This document shows positions 140-11,635 of a DNA stretch of 64,000 nt, piece by piece. The stretch spans positions 186,001-250,000 of the forward strand of contig NZ_NBYO01000001.1 in NCBI RefSeq assembly GCF_002238045.1, in the 5' to 3' direction. Position 1 is the stretch's first letter. Each line of letters starts with the position of its first letter. Position numbers and translations under genes: made by a program. A model generated the notes under the pieces. That model worked only from the letters and a program-made list of their open reading frames with translations. It had not been told where the DNA came from and made no database searches. This DNA is from Notoacmeibacter marinus. GTDB lineage: Bacteria; Pseudomonadota; Alphaproteobacteria; Rhizobiales; Rhizobiaceae.

Positions 140-1528
140 TCAGGAGACCGTGACAGCAGCCTCTTTCGCAAGGGTTTCGAGAAGCGAAGCCGTTTCGCTC
201 TTAGCGGCAGGTGCGCGACCCTCCGGCGCGCCGTCGGGCTTCGGCCCGCCATAAGCCCAGTCGAGCAGCTTGACCGTGTGAATGAGCGGCACGCCCGCCT
301 CGCCCGACAATTGCATAATGCAGCCAATATTGCCGGCGGCGATGACTTCCGGCTCCGTTGCCTTCAGGTTCTTCAGCTTGCGTTTTTTGAGCCGGCCTGC
401 AATCTCCGGCTGGGTGATATTGTAGGTGCCGGCAGACCCACAGCACAGATGCTTCTCCGCCGGTTCGGACACATTGAAGCCAGCCGCGCGCAGCAGATCG
501 ATGGGCGTCTCGGTGATCCGCTGACCGTGCTGCATCGAGCAAGCCGAATGATAGGTGACGTTCAGGCCCGTCTCGTTCACCGGCTCCGGCAGATCGAGCG
601 CGTAAAGATATTCGGTGATGTCCTTGGCGATCGCGGCGACCTTTTCGGCGCGTTTCGCATAGCCCTCGTCGTGCCGCAGCATGAAACCGTAATCCTTGAT
701 CGTGGTTCCGCAGCCGCTGGCCGTGATGATGATCGCGTCGAGCCCCTCGCCCTCGATCTGGCGGCTCCAGGCATCGACGTTCTTTCGCGCGAAATCGAGC
801 GACGCTTCCTCGCGGCCCATATGGTGGACGAGCGCGCCGCAGCAGGTTTCGCCGCGCGGCACGACCACCTCGACACCGACCCGGTTCAGGAGGCGGATCG
901 TCGCTTCATTGGTTTCGGCATCGAGAACGCTCTGTGCGCAGCCGGTCAGAATGGCGACGCGCCCGCGCCTGGCGACGGTCGGGTCGGCACGGCGGACGCC
1001 AGGCGCAACACTGTCGCTCTTCGGCGGCATTTGCGCCGGAGCCAGCGCAAGCATGGCGGTAAACGGTTTCGTCAACTCCCAGCGTCCGAAAAGACCGGCG
1101 AAGGGGCGGCCGATCTGCGCGCCGCGCAGCGCCAGCCGGAACCGCGACGGGTAAGGCAGGACCGCCGCCAGCACGTTGCGCAGCGCGCGCTCGTGCCATG
1201 GTCGCTTATAGGTCTTCTCGATATGGGCGCGGGCATGGTCGACCAGGTGCATATAGTTCACGCCCGACGGGCAGGTCGTCATGCAGGCAAGGCAGGAGAG
1301 GCACCGGTCGATATGGGTGACGGTCTTCTCGTCAGCAGGCCGGTCGTTCTCCAGCATCTCCTTGATGAGGTAGATGCGCCCGCGCGGGCTGTCGAGTTCG
1401 TTGCCGAGCGTGACATAGGTCGGGCAGGTGGCGGTGCAGAAACCGCAATGGACGCATTTGCGCAGGATCGCCTCGGAATGGGCGGTGGCAGGATCGGTCA
1501 GCTGCTCGGCGGTGAAATTGGTCTGCAT
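140..1528 (-). CDS. glcF: Glycolate oxidase iron-sulfur subunit GlcF
   Basis: GlcF (462 aa) is the electron-transfer subunit of the membrane-associated glycolate oxidase GlcDEF, which oxidises glycolate to glyoxylate. Two ferredoxin-type 4Fe-4S motifs are visible: Cys25-x2-Cys28-x2-Cys31-x3-Cys35-Pro and Cys76-x2-Cys79-x2-Cys82-x3-Cys86-Pro. Two CCG domains follow, with ETCCGALVHH near residue 229 and HLCCGSAGTY near residue 360. The protein is longer than E. coli GlcF (407 aa), mainly through an Ala/Pro/Lys-rich tail of about 30 residues. The start ATG at 1526-1528 overlaps the stop of the upstream AT-rich gene as TGATG, so translation is probably coupled. It is the last gene of the glcD-glcE-(intruder)-glcF order on the minus strand. 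Confidence 0.95.
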   Translation of the reverse strand: MQTNFTAEQLTDPATAHSEAILRKCVHCGFCTATCPTYVTLGNELDSPRGRIYLIKEMLENDRPADEKTVTHIDRCLSCLACMTTCPSGVNYMHLVDHARAHIEKTYKRPWHERALRNVLAAVLPYPSRFRLALRGAQIGRPFAGLFGRWELTKPFTAMLALAPAQMPPKSDSVAPGVRRADPTVARRGRVAILTGCAQSVLDAETNEATIRLLNRVGVEVVVPRGETCCGALVHHMGREEASLDFARKNVDAWSRQIEGEGLDAIIITASGCGTTIKDYGFMLRHDEGYAKRAEKVAAIAKDITEYLYALDLPEPVNETGLNVTYHSACSMQHGQRITETPIDLLRAAGFNVSEPAEKHLCCGSAGTYNITQPEIAGRLKKRKLKNLKATEPEVIAAGNIGCIMQLSGEAGVPLIHTVKLLDWAYGGPKPDGAPEGRAPAAKSETASLLETLAKEAAVTVS

Positions 1529-2193
1529 CAGCGACTCTTAGGCGTCATAACCACAGCATAGCCACACTGCCAATATCTGTAGCCATCCCAATCTTTAGAA
1601 TTAATTCTTATACCTCCCTGAAACTTGAATTCAGGATACGCTGACTTTGACTTTTCCATAAAATCCTCCAAGGTTGTCCGAAATACTTCTTCTGCCTCCT
1701 CGTTCATACAACCAGCGTCGTTGTCGATTTCTTCTTCGCGGTCGCGTGTAGCTGCAAAAGCTGCCCAACGAAATGTTCCCTTGTTCAATACCCCGTACTT
1801 CTCGATCAATTTAGCTGATCTATCTACATCCTTAGATAAATTAGAATAACCGAATTGCCTTTTAACCTCGACAATACCAATGGGAAAATCTCTTTTGTGC
1901 CAATACACAATATCCGCACGCTGTCCATTTTTCAGTAAAGTTGGTATTCTTCCTCTTTCTCCTGATTTACCTGACAAATCTCTTAACATTTTGAATCCAG
2001 TTTCTAAACTTACGAAGCACCTTTCGTCTTTTTCGCATCCAGCATCGTATAGACTCTTAGCTACTGCAGCAGAAATTAACGACTCCGGTCCTGATTGACT
2101 GATTGACCAACCTCCTGTCATATCAAGATAATTATTGTTAGCGATTTCAATTCCACTCAAAATTGCTTGATATGTTTCTTTTGCTGTCAGCAT
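1528..2193 (-). CDS. AT-rich orphan gene with PD-(D/E)XK nuclease-like signature
   Basis: This 221-aa protein is not one I recognise by family name. Its base composition is clearly lower in GC than both flanking genes (runs such as 1600-1680 and 1790-1960 are visibly AT-rich), which suggests recent acquisition. The middle of the protein has the layout of a PD-(D/E)XK nuclease core: Asp94 in QRADIVYW, then Glu109-Val-Lys111 in GIVEVKRQ. Glu37 or Glu64 are candidates for the helix acid. The C-terminal half is charged, with a Glu/Asp cluster near 155-170. It lies exactly between glcE (11-bp gap) and glcF (TGATG overlap), so the operon frame is undisturbed. Its ATG has only a weak ribosome site (AGAGA). 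A restriction- or repair-type nuclease or a defence gene is inference from the motif alone. Confidence 0.7.
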   Translation of the reverse strand: MLTAKETYQAILSGIEIANNNYLDMTGGWSISQSGPESLISAAVAKSLYDAGCEKDERCFVSLETGFKMLRDLSGKSGERGRIPTLLKNGQRADIVYWHKRDFPIGIVEVKRQFGYSNLSKDVDRSAKLIEKYGVLNKGTFRWAAFAATRDREEEIDNDAGCMNEEAEEVFRTTLEDFMEKSKSAYPEFKFQGGIRINSKDWDGYRYWQCGYAVVMTPKSR

Positions 2194-2204
2194 TTACTGT
2201 CTCT

Positions 2205-3428
2205 CTAAGCCACCATTTTTCCGGGATTGAGAATGCCCTTGGGGTCGAAGGCGTCGCGGATCCGTTTTTCCAGCGTAACGAGGGGTTTGGCCTGCGGCTG
2301 AAAAGGTACGGCGAAACGCCGTTCGCTCGGCGTCGCGCGGATGAGCATGGCGTGGCCGCCGCCATGGGCTGCCACGGTCTTCCGCACGAGCCCCGACAGC
2401 GTATTGCCGCCCTCCATTCGTACCCAGGCCAACCCGCCCTGCCAGTCATAAAAGGCGGACGCGCCGGCCTCCATGCGCAGCGCCATCACCGCTTCATGGG
2501 CGTCGGACGGTTTCATCGAGAGCCGCCAGACCGGGCGCTGCCTCTGATCGGCGAAGGGTTTGACGTCGCGAATGTCGGACCAGAGCCGCTGGCTCCGTTC
2601 GGCGTCCAGCGTTTCGATCTCGCCGAGCCGGCCGAACATCGCCTTCAGCTTCTCGGCGCGTTCATGGACGGAGCTTTCGAACCCCTCCAGACGCATCAGC
2701 GTGGCCGGCTCCGAGCCAAGCGCGCCATCGAGCACCTTGCCGGCAGTGAGTTCGGGCAGATGCGCCGCGCCCGTCACATCGGTGGACGTCGCCATGGCGT
2801 GAGCAAGGACGGTCACGGCATCGGCCTCCAGCAGGCCACGCACGGCAAGGGTCGCTTCGGTCTCCGGCTTCGGCTGCACTTTCAGCGTGACTTCAGTCAG
2901 AACGCCGAGCGTGCCGAAACTGCCGGCCATCGGCTTCACCAGATCGAGGCCGGTAACATTTTTCATCACCCGCCCGCCATTCTTGACGATCTCGCCTCTG
3001 CCATTGACGAAGCGGACGCCCAGCAGGCTGTCGCGGCAAGCCCCTGCGACGAAGCGGCGCGGGCCGGAGGCGTTGACCGCCACCATGCCGCCGACCGTCG
3101 GCTTGCCTTCGGTGCCGAGCAGGGTGTGGTGGTCGATCGGCTCGAAGACGAAGCGCTGATTGGCTTCGTCCAGCGCGGCCTGCAATTCGGTAAGCGGCGT
3201 TCCGGCTTTTACCGTGGCGACCATCTCATTGGGCGAATAAGCGACGATGCCGGAGAGTCTGGCCGTCGAGAGCGTGGCGAGGGCATCGACCGGGCGGCCG
3301 AATGTCCGTGTGCCACCACCTTCGATCTCGAGCGGCGTGCCCTCTTCGGCCGCTTCGCGAACGGCATCGGCCAATTCGGTCTCGTCAGCCGGCTCGATCC
3401 GCCGGTCGGCCTTGTCCGAAGGGATCAT
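2205..3428 (-). CDS. glcE: Glycolate oxidase FAD-binding subunit GlcE
   Basis: GlcE (407 aa) is the second flavin-domain subunit of glycolate oxidase. It has one FAD_binding_4 (PCMH-type) domain over roughly residues 15-190, including VKAGTPLTEL, GKPTVGGMVAVNASGPRR and the very typical GlcE segment GGRVMKNVTGLDLVKP. It ends with FDPKGILNPGKM, the common C-terminal signature of GlcD/GlcE flavoproteins. It lacks the large FAD-oxidase C-terminal domain present in GlcD, as expected. Its ATG overlaps the glcD stop (ATGA at 3425-3428), showing translational coupling. The downstream neighbour in the operon is the AT-rich orphan gene rather than glcF directly. Confidence 0.95.
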   Translation of the reverse strand: MIPSDKADRRIEPADETELADAVREAAEEGTPLEIEGGGTRTFGRPVDALATLSTARLSGIVAYSPNEMVATVKAGTPLTELQAALDEANQRFVFEPIDHHTLLGTEGKPTVGGMVAVNASGPRRFVAGACRDSLLGVRFVNGRGEIVKNGGRVMKNVTGLDLVKPMAGSFGTLGVLTEVTLKVQPKPETEATLAVRGLLEADAVTVLAHAMATSTDVTGAAHLPELTAGKVLDGALGSEPATLMRLEGFESSVHERAEKLKAMFGRLGEIETLDAERSQRLWSDIRDVKPFADQRQRPVWRLSMKPSDAHEAVMALRMEAGASAFYDWQGGLAWVRMEGGNTLSGLVRKTVAAHGGGHAMLIRATPSERRFAVPFQPQAKPLVTLEKRIRDAFDPKGILNPGKMVA

Positions 3429-4921
3429 TCCGCCGCCTCCATTGGCGAAGGGCGCGTATCGGGGTCGGCCGAAGCCTTGCCGCCATCAGTTTCGCCGCGG
3501 CCTTCCAGCGGAAAGACCTTGGAGGGGTTGAAAATCCATTCGGGATCGAAAGCGGCGCGCACGGCCTTCATCTGATCGAGGTCGGTGTCGTTATATTGAT
3601 GCGTCATCAGATCGCGCTTCTCGATGCCGACGCCATGTTCGCCGGTCAGGCATCCGCCGGCATCGACACAGAGCCGCAGAATATCGTTGCCGGCATCCTC
3701 CGCCTTCTGGCGTTTAACCGGATCGTTCACATCGTAGAGGATGAGCGGGTGCATGTTTCCGTCGCCGGCGTGAAACACATTGGCGGCGCGCAAACCGTAG
3801 CGCTTGACGATCTCGCCAGTCTCTTTCAGCACATAGGCAAGCTGGCTGAGCGGCACGGTGCCGTCCATGCAGATGTAATCGGCCACGCGGCCCGTTGCGC
3901 CGAAGGCGCTCTTGCGCCCCTTCCAGATCAGCGCCGCCTCGGTGGCGCTCTGGCTCTCCTTGATGGTCTGCACATCGTGGCGTCGCGCGATCTCGACAAT
4001 ACGACCGAGCTGGTCGGCCATTTCCTTGTCGGAGCCTTCGACCTCAACGATCAGCAGCGCTTCCGCATCGAGCGGATATCCGGCCTTGGCGAAGGCTTCG
4101 CAAATGGCGATGGCTTCCTTGTCCATGAATTCGATGGCCACGGGAATGATGCCGGCGGCGATGATGTCGGCCACGCAATCGCCGGCCTTCTCGGAGCTGG
4201 CAAAACCGAACAGCACCGGCTGCGCGCCTGCCGGCTTGGCGATCAGGCGGACGATGGCCTCTGTTACCAAGCCGAGCTGGCCCTCCGATCCGCAGACGAG
4301 GCCGAGCAAATCGAGGCCGGCCGGATCGAGTTCGCCCTCGCCGAGGCGGATGACCGTACCGTCGTAGAGAACCATCGTGACGCCGAGCAGATTGTTGGTC
4401 GTGACGCCATATTTCAGGCAATGCGCGCCGCCCGAATTCATGGCGATATTGCCCCCGATCGTGCAGGCGAGCTGGCTCGACGGATCGGGCGCGTAGAAGA
4501 AGCCGTCGGCGGACACCGCCTCGGAAATGGAGAGGTTGGTCACGCCCGCCTCGACCCGCGCCAGGCGATTGGGATAATCGACCTCCAGAATGCGCGACAT
4601 TCTGGTCAACGAGACAATGACCGCATCCTCCTGCGGGATCGCTCCGCCACAAAGCGATGTGCCCGCTCCACGCGGCACAACCGGAACTTTTTTCCGCGCC
4701 AAGGCTTCCATCACTGCCGCGACTTCTTCGGTAGATGACGGCAGAACGACTGCCAATGGCAGTCGGCGATAGGCCGTGAACCCATCGGTTTCGAAGGCGC
4801 GCAACTGGACCGGATCGGAGACAACCGCCTCGTCAGGCAGAACCGACCGCAAACTGGAAACAATATCGTCCCGGCGCGCGAGAATGGAGGGATCGGGCTT
4901 GAGAAACTGGATGGACGTCAC
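3425..4921 (-). CDS. glcD: Glycolate oxidase catalytic flavoprotein subunit GlcD
   Basis: GlcD (498 aa, versus 499 in E. coli) is the FAD subunit that dehydrogenates glycolate or D-lactate-like 2-hydroxyacids. The FAD_binding_4 domain includes VVPRGAGTSLCGGAIP, with IGGNIAMNSGGAH further on. The FAD-oxidase C domain includes NVFHAGDGNMHPLILYD and GCLTGEHGVGIEKR, carrying the conserved metal/substrate His residues. I place the start at GTG 4919-4921, because GGGAGGA lies 6 bases upstream. The ATG at 4936 is the alternative. The frame stays open further upstream, but that stretch runs antisense into the LysR gene and has no GlcD-like sequence. First gene of the glc operon, divergent from the LysR gene. 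Confidence 0.95.
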   Translation of the reverse strand: MTSIQFLKPDPSILARRDDIVSSLRSVLPDEAVVSDPVQLRAFETDGFTAYRRLPLAVVLPSSTEEVAAVMEALARKKVPVVPRGAGTSLCGGAIPQEDAVIVSLTRMSRILEVDYPNRLARVEAGVTNLSISEAVSADGFFYAPDPSSQLACTIGGNIAMNSGGAHCLKYGVTTNNLLGVTMVLYDGTVIRLGEGELDPAGLDLLGLVCGSEGQLGLVTEAIVRLIAKPAGAQPVLFGFASSEKAGDCVADIIAAGIIPVAIEFMDKEAIAICEAFAKAGYPLDAEALLIVEVEGSDKEMADQLGRIVEIARRHDVQTIKESQSATEAALIWKGRKSAFGATGRVADYICMDGTVPLSQLAYVLKETGEIVKRYGLRAANVFHAGDGNMHPLILYDVNDPVKRQKAEDAGNDILRLCVDAGGCLTGEHGVGIEKRDLMTHQYNDTDLDQMKAVRAAFDPEWIFNPSKVFPLEGRGETDGGKASADPDTRPSPMEAAE

Positions 4922-5026
4922 GATCGCTCCTCCCATCGGTGTATGCGTCAGAACACCAGAAATACATCTATGGCTTCGCCGCCAGCCCGCAAGATGCAGC
5001 CTGCCGAAACGGTCCGGGGAGCGAAC
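4922..5026. promoter_or_regulatory. Divergent glcD / LysR-regulator promoter gap
   Basis: This 105-bp gap separates the glcD start from the divergent LysR-type gene, the usual arrangement when a LysR protein controls its neighbour and itself from one site. It holds both ribosome sites (GGGAGGA for glcD, GGGGAG for the LysR gene). I could not pick a convincing T-N11-A LysR box by eye. Confidence 0.5.
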
Positions 5027-5959
5027 ATGACCCCGACCGCCGAACTGGAAATCTTCGCGCGTGTCGTCTCGGCCGGTTCGCTGTCGGCTGCGGGCCGGGA
5101 AATGGGCCTGTCGCCGGCCGTGGTGTCCAAGCGGCTGCGCAAGCTGGAAGACCGGCTCGGCACGCGCCTTCTGCAGCGGACAACGCGGCAGATCGCGTTG
5201 ACCGAGGCCGGCCAGGGCTTTCACGAGCGGGTCGTTGCCATTCTGGCTGCCGTGGAGGAGGCGGAGTCCTTCGTTTCGCGTCGCTCGGCACAGGCCAGAG
5301 GCACTTTGAAAATCTCGGCCCCGACCTCGTTCGGGCGGATGCACGTCGCCCCGCATCTGACAGCCTTCATGGAAGCTCATCCCGATCTGTCGATCAATCT
5401 GGCTCTATCGGATGAGTTCGTCGATATCGTCGCGGATGGTTTCGATCTGGCGATCCGGATTGCCGAACTCCCCGACAGTTCGCTGGTCGCGCGCCGGCTC
5501 GCCGATGTCGAACGGCTTCTGGTCGCCGCGCCGGACTATCTAGCCAAGCATGGCGAGCCGAAATCGGTCGACGATCTGGCGCAGCATCTGTGCCTTCCTC
5601 CGCATAATGGCGAGCTTTGGCGTTTGGAAGGTCCCGATGGCGCGGCCGTCTCATTGCGGCCGGACGGTCCGCTTTCGACCAATTCGTCAGAAGTTCTGCG
5701 CGAAGCGGTGATCGCCGGTACGGGAATCGCCCTGCGCTCCACATGGGATATCGGCTCGGAGCTGGCGCGCGGCGAACTGGTGCACGTGTTGCCGGATTGG
5801 CGGGCATCGCGCCATATCGGACTTCATGCCGTCTATCCCTCGCGGCGCTTCCTGCCTGTGAAGGTCCGCCTCTTCATCGACTATCTGGCCGATCTGTACG
5901 GTCCCGAACCTTATTGGGACCATCCGCGCAATTCGGAGTATTCCACTGCGGCCGAATAG
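5027..5959 (+). CDS. LysR-family transcriptional regulator
   Basis: A 310-aa LysR regulator. The N-terminal winged helix-turn-helix spans roughly residues 1-60 (LSAAGREMGLSPAVVSKRLRKLEDRLGTRLLQRTTR, read in parts), with the substrate-binding domain from about residue 90 (RGTLKISAPTSFGRMHVAP). The ATG at 5027 is chosen because GGGGAG sits 6 bases upstream and the HTH then begins at the usual distance. An in-frame ATG at 4970 would add residues with no family support. Divergent from glcD, so control of glycolate oxidation is a reasonable inference, but the AaeR/DsdC-like subfamilies cannot be told apart here. In E. coli the glc operon is controlled by GlcC, a GntR protein, so this would be a non-orthologous regulator. 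Confidence 0.9.
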   Translation: MTPTAELEIFARVVSAGSLSAAGREMGLSPAVVSKRLRKLEDRLGTRLLQRTTRQIALTEAGQGFHERVVAILAAVEEAESFVSRRSAQARGTLKISAPTSFGRMHVAPHLTAFMEAHPDLSINLALSDEFVDIVADGFDLAIRIAELPDSSLVARRLADVERLLVAAPDYLAKHGEPKSVDDLAQHLCLPPHNGELWRLEGPDGAAVSLRPDGPLSTNSSEVLREAVIAGTGIALRSTWDIGSELARGELVHVLPDWRASRHIGLHAVYPSRRFLPVKVRLFIDYLADLYGPEPYWDHPRNSEYSTAAE

Positions 5960-9667: not shown

Positions 9668-10365
9668 GCAGCGCCAGAGACATCATCTTGCAAAGGATTG
9701 GCAAGGCTATCGAGGAAGGTCGTGCACCGCCCCGATCCGAAAGGGAGAGCGGCGCCGAAGCCTGTCTCGCAGCAAAGGAAAACGTTCTGGTGCCAGCGGG
9801 CGCGAACGTCTCCGGCGACGAGGCCATCGCCCTTTTCACGCAAAAGGCGCAAAGCGTTCAGACCACCATCCGGCATGTGGCCGCAATCTCGGACGTGGCC
9901 GAGGCCGTCTCCCAATACCTAACCGCCAAAAACCTGCCACAGGCGATCCGGCGCGGAAGCGACCCGCTTCTCGACAGGGCCGGTTGGGAAGCACAGCCGT
10001 TGATGGAGGTGACGATCGGCCCCTCGGACGGTTCCGACCGCGTCGGCCTGTCGGTGGCGGTGAGTGCAGTCGCCGAAACAGGAACCCTCATTTTGTCGTC
10101 CGGGCCGGACAATCCGACGACGCTGAACTTTCTGCCCGACCACCATCTTGTCGTCCTATCCGCCGCGCGGATCGTCGGGCCGCTGGAAGAGGCTTTGCGG
10201 GCGACGGTCGCCGAGGCCGGTCCGGCCGGCATCCTGCCGCGCATCGTCAATCTGATTACCGGGCCGTCACGCTCCGGCGATGTCGAGCAACAGATCGTGC
10301 TGGGCGCTCACGGACCGCGCGCCGTTCACGTTATCCTCATAGGCGACCATCCGACCGCGGTCTGA
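9664..10365 (+). CDS. lutC: L-lactate utilisation protein LutC (LUD domain)
   Basis: LutC (233 aa; YkgG) is the small LUD-domain subunit of the LutABC lactate oxidase. The conserved segment SVAVSAVAETGTLILSSG and the ending segment HGPRAVHVILIGDHP are typical. I choose the ATG at 9664, which overlaps the lutB stop (ATGA), rather than the longer open frame that runs back into lutB. The gene is the last of the operon and is followed 10 bases later by a strong hairpin terminator. No lactate permease (lldP/lctP) follows. Confidence 0.92.
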   Translation: MSSARDIILQRIGKAIEEGRAPPRSERESGAEACLAAKENVLVPAGANVSGDEAIALFTQKAQSVQTTIRHVAAISDVAEAVSQYLTAKNLPQAIRRGSDPLLDRAGWEAQPLMEVTIGPSDGSDRVGLSVAVSAVAETGTLILSSGPDNPTTLNFLPDHHLVVLSAARIVGPLEEALRATVAEAGPAGILPRIVNLITGPSRSGDVEQQIVLGAHGPRAVHVILIGDHPTAV

Positions 10366-10375
10366 TCCCAAAACG

Positions 10376-10401
10376 AAACACCCCGCTTGCGCGGGGTGTT
10401 T
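10376..10401. terminator. Bidirectional hairpin terminator after lutC and the 46-aa gene
   Basis: A perfect 11-bp stem (AAACACCCCGC / GCGGGGTGTTT) with the 4-base loop TTGC. It lies between lutC (plus) and the small minus-strand gene ending at 10425. The T-rich tail is better on the minus strand (TTTCGTTTTG) than on the plus strand (GTTTGCC), so it probably serves both. Confidence 0.8.
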
Positions 10402-10424
10402 GCCAAATTGCTATTTTCAAAGGA

Positions 10425-10565
10425 TCAGTTGATCGCGGCAACAACACCGTAACCGGCGGCGTAGCCATTGCTGGCTTCGGCTTCAGTTGCGTTCATGCCA
10501 ACATACCAGATACCGGCGGCAGTCAGGGTAAAAACGGAAAAAAGGGCTGCTTTCACGGCGTTCAT
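10425..10565 (-). CDS. Small 46-aa membrane or secreted peptide
   Basis: This gene codes for 46 residues: a short basic start (MNAVKA), a hydrophobic helix at about residues 5-24 (LFSVFTLTAAGIWYVG), then ATEAEA, which resembles a signal-peptidase site, and a Gly/Ala/Tyr tail (SNGYAAGYGVVAAIN). I do not recognise the family. Evidence that it is real: intact frame with start and stop, sensible protein chemistry, a strong terminator 24 bases downstream, and an upstream sigma-EcfG-type promoter at 10650-10674 in the right orientation. The ribosome site is weak (GCGAGACC, about 8 bases before the ATG). It could be a single-pass membrane peptide or a secreted peptide of about 15 residues. Confidence 0.65.
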   Translation of the reverse strand: MNAVKAALFSVFTLTAAGIWYVGMNATEAEASNGYAAGYGVVAAIN

Positions 10566-10649
10566 CTCGAATGGTCTCGCAATCTCGGTTATAGATCAAT
10601 TTGCTTTCCGAAACGTTCCCGCCGGCAGGGTCGCTTCATTCGAGGGGCT

Positions 10650-10674
10650 AACGGAGTGTGGCGGATGTGGTTCC
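10650..10674 (-). promoter_or_regulatory. Sigma-EcfG-type promoter upstream of the 46-aa gene
   Basis: On the minus strand the site reads GGAAC, 16 bases, CGTT, a full match to the alphaproteobacterial general-stress (EcfG) promoter consensus GGAAC-N16/17-CGTT. Transcription would start near 10644, leaving a leader of roughly 75-80 bases before the ATG at 10565. The -10 surroundings (CACTCCGTT) are the same as in the phasin promoter at 21300-21324. Confidence 0.65.
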
Positions 10675-10864
10675 CCAAAAGAACACAATTCTGCTCACTT
10701 TGCCGTTACCCAAGAAACAGCACGTGATCGGTAACGGGCGGCTTATGGGCCCAAACCGTAACAGGCGAAAGTCATTAAATCGTTGTCGTTGACGCTCCCT
10801 GTGGAAACGTGTCCTACCCGCAACAGCGACCGTCCATTAACCATTCACAAACCATAGAGAGACA

Positions 10865-11635
10865 ATGCGCGCCGATTACCGCCTGCCCCGCCTCTTCATC
10901 GACGGTGATCTATCCGAGGCAAAGCCTGTCGTTCTGACCAAGGATCAAAGCAACTATCTACTCAATGTCCTACGCATGGACGACAGCGCCCCGTTGCTTC
11001 TCTTCAACGGGCGCGACGGCGAGTGGCGCGCGGCGCTTCGGCGATCGGGCAAAAAGGGCGGGGTACTGGAGATCGGAGAACAGGTGCGGCCGCAGCCGCC
11101 GATGCCCGACCTCCATTACCTTTTCGCGCCGCTAAAGGTCGGCCGTATGGATTATATGGTGCAGAAGGCGGTGGAGATGGGCGCCGGCATTATCCAACCG
11201 GTTCAGACCCAGCACACGCAGATGCCGCGGATCAATGCCGGCCGGCTGGAAGCCAATATGCGCGAAGCGGCCGAACAGTGCGGCATTCTGACGCTTGCCG
11301 AACTGCGTCCGATGCAGAAGATCGGCCCGCTGCTGGAAGGGTGGAATCCAGCGCGCCGCATCGTCTTCTGCGACGAGGATGCGACCGACGACGATCCCGT
11401 GCCGATCCTTTCCAGGCTGACGCCCGGCCCGATGGCCGTTCTCATCGGCCCGGAAGGCGGGTTTTCGGACGACGAACGGCGGATGCTGCGCGCCCTGCCC
11501 TTCGTGACGGCCATTCCGCTCGGGCCGCGCATTCTGCGCGCCGATACGGCCGCGGTGGCGGCACTGGCCCTCGTTCAGGCGGTTTGCGGCGACTGGCGCG
11601 GAAATGTCCACGACGATCGTGTGACAGACGATTGA
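10865..11635 (+). CDS. rsmE: 16S rRNA (uracil-1498-N3)-methyltransferase RsmE
   Basis: RsmE (256 aa) methylates N3 of U1498 in helix 44 of 16S rRNA using SAM. The N-terminal PUA-like part (residues 1 to about 75) holds LPRLFIDGDL and HYLLNVLRM-type sequence. The C-terminal SPOUT domain carries the trefoil-knot motif LIGPEGGFSDDE near residue 192 and PLGPRILRADTAAVAALALVQ at the end, the standard RsmE signature. It starts with ATG at 10865 after AGAGAGACA. The 299-bp gap upstream holds the promoter of the minus-strand peptide and a TTAACCAT octamer at 10837-10844, but no other gene that I can see. It is followed by gshA in the same direction, a pairing often seen in rhizobia. Confidence 0.95.
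   Translation: MRADYRLPRLFIDGDLSEAKPVVLTKDQSNYLLNVLRMDDSAPLLLFNGRDGEWRAALRRSGKKGGVLEIGEQVRPQPPMPDLHYLFAPLKVGRMDYMVQKAVEMGAGIIQPVQTQHTQMPRINAGRLEANMREAAEQCGILTLAELRPMQKIGPLLEGWNPARRIVFCDEDATDDDPVPILSRLTPGPMAVLIGPEGGFSDDERRMLRALPFVTAIPLGPRILRADTAAVAALALVQAVCGDWRGNVHDDRVTDD

What the first reader, a model, noticed from the sequence alone, without database searches (positions are those of the whole stretch)
1528..2193. AT-rich PD-(D/E)XK-like gene inserted cleanly between glcE and glcF
The gene's composition is far from its neighbours, yet it sits exactly between two operon genes. There are 11 bases after glcE, and its stop shares bases with the glcF start (TGATG). The protein has Asp94 followed by Glu109-Val-Lys111, the core pattern of PD-(D/E)XK nucleases. 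A stand-alone nuclease carried within a metabolic operon, borrowing its promoter and translational coupling, could be a small defence or selfish element. This is the clearest horizontally acquired gene in the window.
Basis: partly seen in the sequence, partly recalled or inferred. Interest (0 to 1): 0.6.

Follow-up and report, generated by a model that had tools for sequence, protein, structure and literature searches.

The report
Swappable nuclease gene inside glycolate operon
A foreign-looking gene for a probable DNA- or RNA-cutting enzyme sits in one gap of a bacterial glycolate-use operon, and in related bacteria that same gap is empty or holds other small genes, some of them toxin-like or nuclease genes, so it looks like an exchangeable slot.

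Summary
ORF 1528-2193(-) encodes 221 aa at 40.5% GC between glcE (65.8%) and glcF (64.1%), starts 11 nt after glcE and shares TGATG with glcF. Two congeners have 8-9 nt there.

The protein has no significant match in Pfam, NCBIfam, PHROGs, PADLOC or PDB sequences. I found five family loci; all keep D94, E109, K111 and R112. Two models show a restriction-endonuclease-like core order; structural matches stay below Z 8.

Unexpected: four of the five loci lie at this same glcE-glcF junction, in three genera of two families. Of 270 junctions parsed, 158 are empty and 112 hold different small genes: DUF4870, DUF433+DUF5615 pairs, NucS-like nucleases, this family, HigB, PIN and others. One seven-species Aureimonas clade has five contents.

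Best reading: a stand-alone PD-(D/E)XK toxin or defence nuclease in a swappable operon-internal slot. Activity, role and transfer route are inferred. Toxin/nuclease genes also occur in other operon gaps; enrichment over a small control is modest.

The parts
1528..2193 (-). the cargo gene: 221-aa predicted PD-(D/E)XK nuclease of an uncharacterised family
   Evidence: ORF; family of five loci and invariant residues; models
1861..1914 (-). predicted catalytic stretch: D94 (1912-1914), E109 (1867-1869), K111 (1861-1863)
   Evidence: invariant in 5 of 5 aligned members; on neighbouring predicted strands 92-99 and 104-111
2194..2204 (-). 11-nt spacer between the glcE stop and the cargo start
1526..1530 (-). 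TGATG: cargo stop and glcF start share one base
140..1528 (-). glcF, downstream flank of the slot
   Evidence: NF008434, 455.6 bits, cut-off 333
2205..3428 (-). glcE, upstream flank of the slot
   Evidence: NF008439, 295.1 bits, cut-off 284
3425..5029 (-). stretch tested as glcD (true start not determined), first gene of the set
   Evidence: best matches are the GlcD models, but below their curated cut-offs (518.6 of 897 and 457.9 of 567.9 bits)

Best explanation
The gene is cargo in an exchangeable slot between glcE and glcF. It encodes a stand-alone PD-(D/E)XK nuclease of an uncharacterised family that most likely acts as a toxin or defence nuclease. It has no integrase of its own; alleles with different cargo or none are proposed to move between species by homologous recombination across the conserved glcE and glcF flanks. 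The cargo is tolerated because it can be read through from the glc promoter and ends on the glcF start, so that translation passes on to glcF. Shown: position, spacing, foreign composition, empty congeners, conserved catalytic residues, predicted core order, and different contents of the same slot in relatives. Inferred: nuclease activity, its target, the toxin or defence role, co-transcription, and the recombination route.
For: D94, E109, K111, R112 invariant in 5 of 5. Two models with the same element order, D and ExK on neighbouring strands. Restriction-endonuclease-like and cap-snatching endonuclease structures fill most of the top 25 rows of both structural second looks. Weak Pfam signals for HSDR_N_2 (3 of 5 members, best E 0.022) and DUF234 (1 of 5, E 0.003). 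Four of five loci at the same junction, 7-11 nt after glcE and -1 to 0 nt from glcF, GC 0.18-0.25 below the glcE end. Junctions of 2 congeners and of 4 other genomes of the Afifella genus code are empty. 112 of 270 junctions occupied by different genes; five contents in one Aureimonas clade. dS of the cargo 2.2 between two Aureimonas against 0.50 (glcE) and 0.45 (glcF). None of the five glcE-glcF cargo profiles hits the glcD-glcE gaps, as expected if cargo travels with its flanks.
Against: No activity measured. Structural Z is at most 7.8 and Foldseek has no match at E <= 0.001; methyltransferases and other non-nucleases also appear in the lists. The commonest cargo, DUF4870 (67 alone), is a small gene with no known toxin role. 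No PADLOC match. No sharp identity break in the window's flanks against two congeners, so no recombination tract is seen. High dS may come partly from unequal GC3 (0.71 and 0.50). Toxin/nuclease-like genes also occur in the xdh control gaps (2 of 52 by eye), and over all 270 junctions the excess is not significant (p = 0.135). One family locus is outside glc.
Confidence: 0.5

Rival explanations
1. Homing nuclease: the enzyme recognises and cuts the empty glcE-glcF junction, and repair from the occupied allele copies the gene in.
For: Four of five loci found at one junction in three genera; empty alleles in congeners; conserved junction ends (NPGRM at the GlcE end, MQT at the GlcF start in most rows); nuclease-like fold.
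Against: Unrelated genes without a DNA nuclease (DUF4870) use the same gap. G860 has the gene elsewhere although one of its glcE-glcF junctions is empty with 5 nt. No cleavage data.
Confidence: 0.15
2. Old vertical gene of the glc operon that has been lost in most lineages.
For: Same position in three genera with low identity (24-33% to P0001), and two Aureimonas copies at 72%.
Against: 4 of 270 junctions only; 2 of 21 Aureimonas, 1 of 3 genomes in the window's genus code and 1 of 5 in the Afifella genus code; foreign composition in each of the five; cargo dS 4-5 times that of its flanks.
Confidence: 0.12
3. Accessory gene that serves glycolate oxidation, for example an assembly or regulatory factor.
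For: Position in the glc operon and tight spacing to glcF.
Against: Absent from nearly all parsed glc operons and replaced by unrelated genes within one genus; one member outside glc; nuclease-like residues.
Confidence: 0.06

Closest known systems
PD-(D/E)XK nuclease superfamily (restriction-endonuclease-like fold)
   Same: Conserved D...ExK, predicted helix and strand order, structural neighbours such as 3ijm, BamHI, DrdV, BsaXI, NucC, HsdR.
   Different: No significant sequence match to a named family; no methyltransferase gene next to it; activity unknown.
Uma2 family (COG4636), described as a likely solo toxin predicted to be PD-(D/E)XK (PMC2701414, passages)
   Same: Stand-alone predicted PD-(D/E)XK gene; a Uma2 gene occurs in the neighbouring glcD-glcE gap of some relatives.
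   Different: P0001 does not match the Uma2 model or any other Pfam model above cut-off.
PIN-DUF433 (COG2442) toxin-antitoxin pairs (PMC2701414, PMC3834315; passages)
   Same: DUF433 modules use the same glcE-glcF slot in relatives, on the same strand and close to glcF.
   Different: P0001 is a single gene with no antitoxin-like partner in the 676-nt gap.
Free-standing homing endonucleases (family recalled, not from a call)
   Same: Gene nearly fixed at one junction, with empty alleles in relatives.
   Different: One family member lies at another site; cleavage of the empty allele is unknown.

Membership tests
PD-(D/E)XK nuclease superfamily | D ... (D/E)xK active-site residues | tested here: met
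   D94, E109, K111 invariant in 5 of 5 aligned members
PD-(D/E)XK nuclease superfamily | alpha-beta-beta-beta-alpha-beta core with D and ExK on neighbouring strands | tested here: met
   predicted order H37-53, E59-66, E92-99, E104-111, H116-133, E143-155 with a short helix 67-73; same order in the Aureimonas model; predictions only
PD-(D/E)XK nuclease superfamily | structural match to solved members | tested here: inconclusive
   best Z 7.8 and 7.5 (3ijm), no Z of 8 or more, Foldseek none at E <= 0.001
PD-(D/E)XK nuclease superfamily | metal-dependent nuclease activity | not testable with these tools
   needs a purified protein
Known anti-phage defence proteins (PADLOC models) | match to a PADLOC model | tested here: not met
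   0 families up to E = 10
Type II toxin-antitoxin pair | toxin gene with an adjacent antitoxin gene | tested here: not met
   the 676-nt gap holds the 666-nt gene only; neighbours are glcE and glcF
Homing endonuclease | empty alleles at the insertion site in relatives | tested here: met
   junctions of 8 and 9 nt in two congeners
Homing endonuclease | family confined to its target site | tested here: inconclusive
   4 of 5 loci at glcE-glcF; G860 elsewhere
Homing endonuclease | cleavage of the empty allele | not testable with these tools
   needs a cleavage assay

The most novel reading that the evidence does not exclude
The family is a nuclease that homes into the glcE-glcF junction. By cutting empty alleles it helped make this junction a landing slot that toxin-antitoxin and other nuclease cassettes then exploit, so that a core metabolic operon serves as a standing docking site for swappable nuclease cassettes without any integrase.
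Probability: 0.12. Interest if true: 0.8.

Novelty: new variant of a known kind. Interest (0 to 1): 0.55.

Why it matters
Defence and toxin genes are usually sought in islands and prophages. Here a conserved catabolic operon has a gap that takes and swaps small genes, a good part of them nuclease or toxin-type, often fitted closely to the next gene's start codon. If true, gene-sized gaps between conserved operon partners are a searchable signature for new small nucleases, and the series of empty and occupied alleles is a natural system for testing how such genes move without an integrase. It also gives an unnamed PD-(D/E)XK family with a nearly fixed address.

Tried and rejected
Searches with the protein alone: Pfam best E 0.15 (DUF7345), PADLOC, PHROGs and NCBIfam 0 families, PDB sequences best E 1.6. 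tblastn on plasmids and phages with P0001 and with the G860 homologue: no match in 4 searches. Viral contigs with P0001 and with the five-row alignment: no relative. Genome contigs with P0001: no relative; with the three-row alignment: 3 loci. The profile's best PDB sequence hit (O-phosphoseryl-tRNA synthetase, E 0.13, residues 91-119 only) was set aside as a short motif match.

Weak genome hits dropped and not counted as members: L003 (26%, stops inside), L004 (50 aa inside an ORF that looks Fic-type by eye), L006 (E 1e-3, opposite strand of an hsdS-like gene by eye).

The first classification of slot contents was wrong for DUF5615, because out-of-frame ORFs of DUF4870 genes polluted the profile; redone with such overlaps removed. 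6 of 276 loci could not be parsed. The glcD-glcE gap was meant as a control but proved a second slot, so xdhA-xdhB and xdhB-xdhC gaps were used (22 and 30 gaps parsed from 30 loci). Of the 9 control gaps over 150 nt I looked at the ORFs of most, but not at L303 (248 nt, xdhB-xdhC) nor at the xdhA-xdhB gap of L311 (181 nt). The change counts were not set against shuffled labels.

Considered and rejected: sequencing artefact (same reading frame conserved in independent genomes); element with its own integrase or transposase (no room in the 676-nt gap); two-gene toxin-antitoxin (no partner); restriction-modification pair (neighbours are glcE and glcF; the rest of the window was not scanned for methyltransferases).

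Literature: no held paper contains both DUF433 and DUF5615. Five contain glcE, glcF and 'inserted'; none concerns this by title and abstract start. Searches gave nothing on this slot in their listings. These were seen as listings only.

Full report
What is there. The ORF at 1528-2193(-) is real: 221 aa, ATG start, 11 nt after the glcE stop, its own stop sharing one base with the glcF start. Its GC is 0.405 (GC3 0.342); of 571 tiles of 666 nt over the window, the three at or below 0.45 all lie on it. The neighbours are GlcE and GlcF by NCBIfam, over the cut-offs.

What the protein is. Alone it matches nothing at a useful level in Pfam, NCBIfam, PHROGs, PADLOC or PDB sequences. Convincing hits other than the window's own: 1 in 297 family genomes, 1 in 397 order genomes, 1 in 385 class genomes, 2 in 21 genomes of the Aureimonas genus code, 1 in 332 order genomes with the five-row profile. 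These samples overlap and must not be added; three weak hits were dropped (see Tried and rejected). The other four are 24-33% identical to the window's protein; the two Aureimonas copies are 72% identical. E37, E64, D94, E109, K111 and R112 are among the 20 invariant positions. Pfam gives weak signals only: HSDR_N_2 in 3 of 5 members (best E 0.022) and DUF234 in 1 of 5 (E 0.003). AlphaFold2 models of the window protein (best model pLDDT 86.8; the five range from 67.9) and of the Aureimonas protein (83.0; from 42.3) have the same order of elements, with D on one strand and ExK on the next. The structural second looks put restriction-endonuclease-like and cap-snatching endonuclease structures in most of the top rows (3ijm Z 7.8 and 7.5; BamHI 6.8; DrdV 6.3; BsaXI 6.0; NucC 6.2; HsdR 5.7), but methyltransferases and others also appear, no Z reaches 8, and Foldseek has no match at E <= 0.001. 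A PD-(D/E)XK nuclease is likely, not proved.

Where it sits elsewhere. In both Aureimonas and in Afifella, as in the window, the gene lies between glcE and glcF on the same strand, 7-11 nt after glcE and -1 to 0 nt from the glcF start, with GC 0.18-0.25 below the glcE end. In G860 it follows, by 6 nt, a gene that looks like a WYL regulator (by eye), GC 0.42 against 0.71; one of that genome's two glcF loci has a glcE-glcF gap of 5 nt, the other could not be parsed. The two congeners of the window genome have 9 and 8 nt between glcE and glcF (L022, L023). Four other genomes of the Afifella genus code have 2 nt.

The slot. From glcF searches of 21 relatives (17 with a match), 23 chosen handles (22), 257 family genomes (228) and 219 order genomes (179), which overlap, I took 276 loci, mostly the better-scoring ones, and parsed 270 junctions. 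This is not a random sample, and a few genomes give two loci. 158 of 270 are empty (under 150 nt). The 112 occupied: DUF4870 alone 67, DUF433+DUF5615 14, this family 4, DUF433 with no recognised partner 2, DUF433+NucS-like 2, NucS-like alone 1, DUF4870 combined with DUF433 modules 5, other 17. Labels rest on profiles built here from seeds named by Pfam (the DUF4870 seed is below Pfam's cut-off, and one of two DUF5615-type seeds shown to Pfam had no match). The 'other' set includes a HigB-like gene, a PIN gene and DUF2585 (Pfam), receiver-type genes (Pfam for the one in L180), a cation-efflux-like gene (by eye), a further PD-(D/E)XK-like gene in two genomes of one family (motif by eye; Pfam 0 families for the one tested; the other copy has an in-frame stop), and gaps without a convincing gene. 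In the window's family 90 of 156 junctions are occupied, outside it 22 of 114; toxin-antitoxin or nuclease-type content is 27 of 156 and 5 of 114.

Exchange. On a tree of 270 GlcE-end plus GlcF-start sequences the content changes at least 58 times; this family accounts for 4 changes with 4 tips, NucS 4, DUF433 12, DUF4870 28 (FastTree, no shuffle control, and such counts cannot tell gain from loss). In Aureimonas a seven-species clade (support 100/99 for GlcF, 95/96 for GlcE) holds five different contents; of the groups around it some are empty and one carries DUF433+DUF5615. The two Aureimonas cargo genes differ at synonymous sites far more (dS 2.2, saturated) than glcE (0.50) or glcF (0.45), with dN 0.19. 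That fits cargo alleles older than their hosts' glc genes, though unequal GC3 (0.71 and 0.50) inflates dS. The window's own GlcE and GlcF group with its congeners, and its flanks show no sharp identity break against them, so only a short stretch can have come with the cargo.

How special is glc? The glcD-glcE gap exceeds 200 nt in 31 of 215 loci; examples named by Pfam are PIN, Uma2, DUF559 and HNH, and a SLATT match below cut-off. None of the five glcE-glcF profiles hits ORFs there at E <= 0.001. As an outside control, 52 xdh gaps (22 xdhA-xdhB, 30 xdhB-xdhC) gave 2 with toxin/nuclease-like genes by eye, two long gaps not looked at. Against 2 of 52, the family's 27 of 156 gives p = 0.019 and all 32 of 270 gives p = 0.135. 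So small toxin or nuclease genes in operon gaps look like a wider habit of these bacteria, and glc is a rich case rather than the only one. What is specific is the address of this family: 4 of its 5 known loci at one junction.

Mechanism. I favour a stand-alone nuclease kept as toxin or defence cargo, moved with flanking glc DNA by homologous recombination, and tolerated because it hands translation on to glcF. Homing is the boldest alternative and is not excluded; G860, with an empty junction and the gene elsewhere, speaks against strict homing. Vertical descent with many losses and a glycolate-related role are less likely. No activity has been measured.

Known context. DUF433 (COG2442) next to PIN genes was predicted as a toxin-antitoxin pair, and Uma2 was described as a likely solo toxin predicted to be PD-(D/E)XK (PMC2701414, passages). 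In a PIN-COG2442 pair of Synechocystis the PIN protein arrests E. coli growth and its partner neutralises it (PMC3834315, abstract and passages). That DUF5615 is PIN-like is recalled, not from a call. I found no paper on a glcE-glcF cargo slot (listings); the library lacks most subscription journals.

Noticed in passing
L041, L116, L139 (glcE-glcF junctions of G1068, G023, G234): A DUF433 gene directly before a NucS-like nuclease gene instead of a PIN-type gene, in three genomes. PMC2701414 (2009, passage) reported no COG2442 neighbours other than PIN genes, so this may be a new partner for this antitoxin family.
   Followed up: partly
glcD-glcE gaps of 31 of 215 loci, e.g. L095, L120, L137, L176: A second slot in the same operon with other toxin/nuclease-type genes: PIN, Uma2, DUF559, HNH.
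   Followed up: partly
L296 and L311 (xdhB-xdhC gaps): A two-gene toxin-antitoxin-like pair and a DUF559-like gene between xanthine dehydrogenase genes (by eye), which suggests that such insertions are not limited to glc.
   Followed up: no
L146, L174, L180, L206 (glcE-glcF junctions): A gene with a membrane-like start and a receiver-like end, beside DUF4870 (L146, L174), beside DUF433 (L180) or alone (L206); Pfam Response_reg for L180.
   Followed up: no
L259: L287 (glcE-glcF junctions of G329 and G504): DUF2585 followed by another PD-(D/E)XK-like gene (DVDLIIAD...WLCEAK, motif by eye), unknown to Pfam for L259; the L287 copy has an in-frame stop.
   Followed up: partly
L036 (G1065): DUF433 alone in a 310-nt gap, inside a clade whose neighbours have DUF433+DUF5615: possibly a decayed pair that lost its second gene.
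   Followed up: no
window 10351-10950: A second, milder GC dip (0.52-0.54 against about 0.63) within the first 12 kb, the only part profiled.
   Followed up: no
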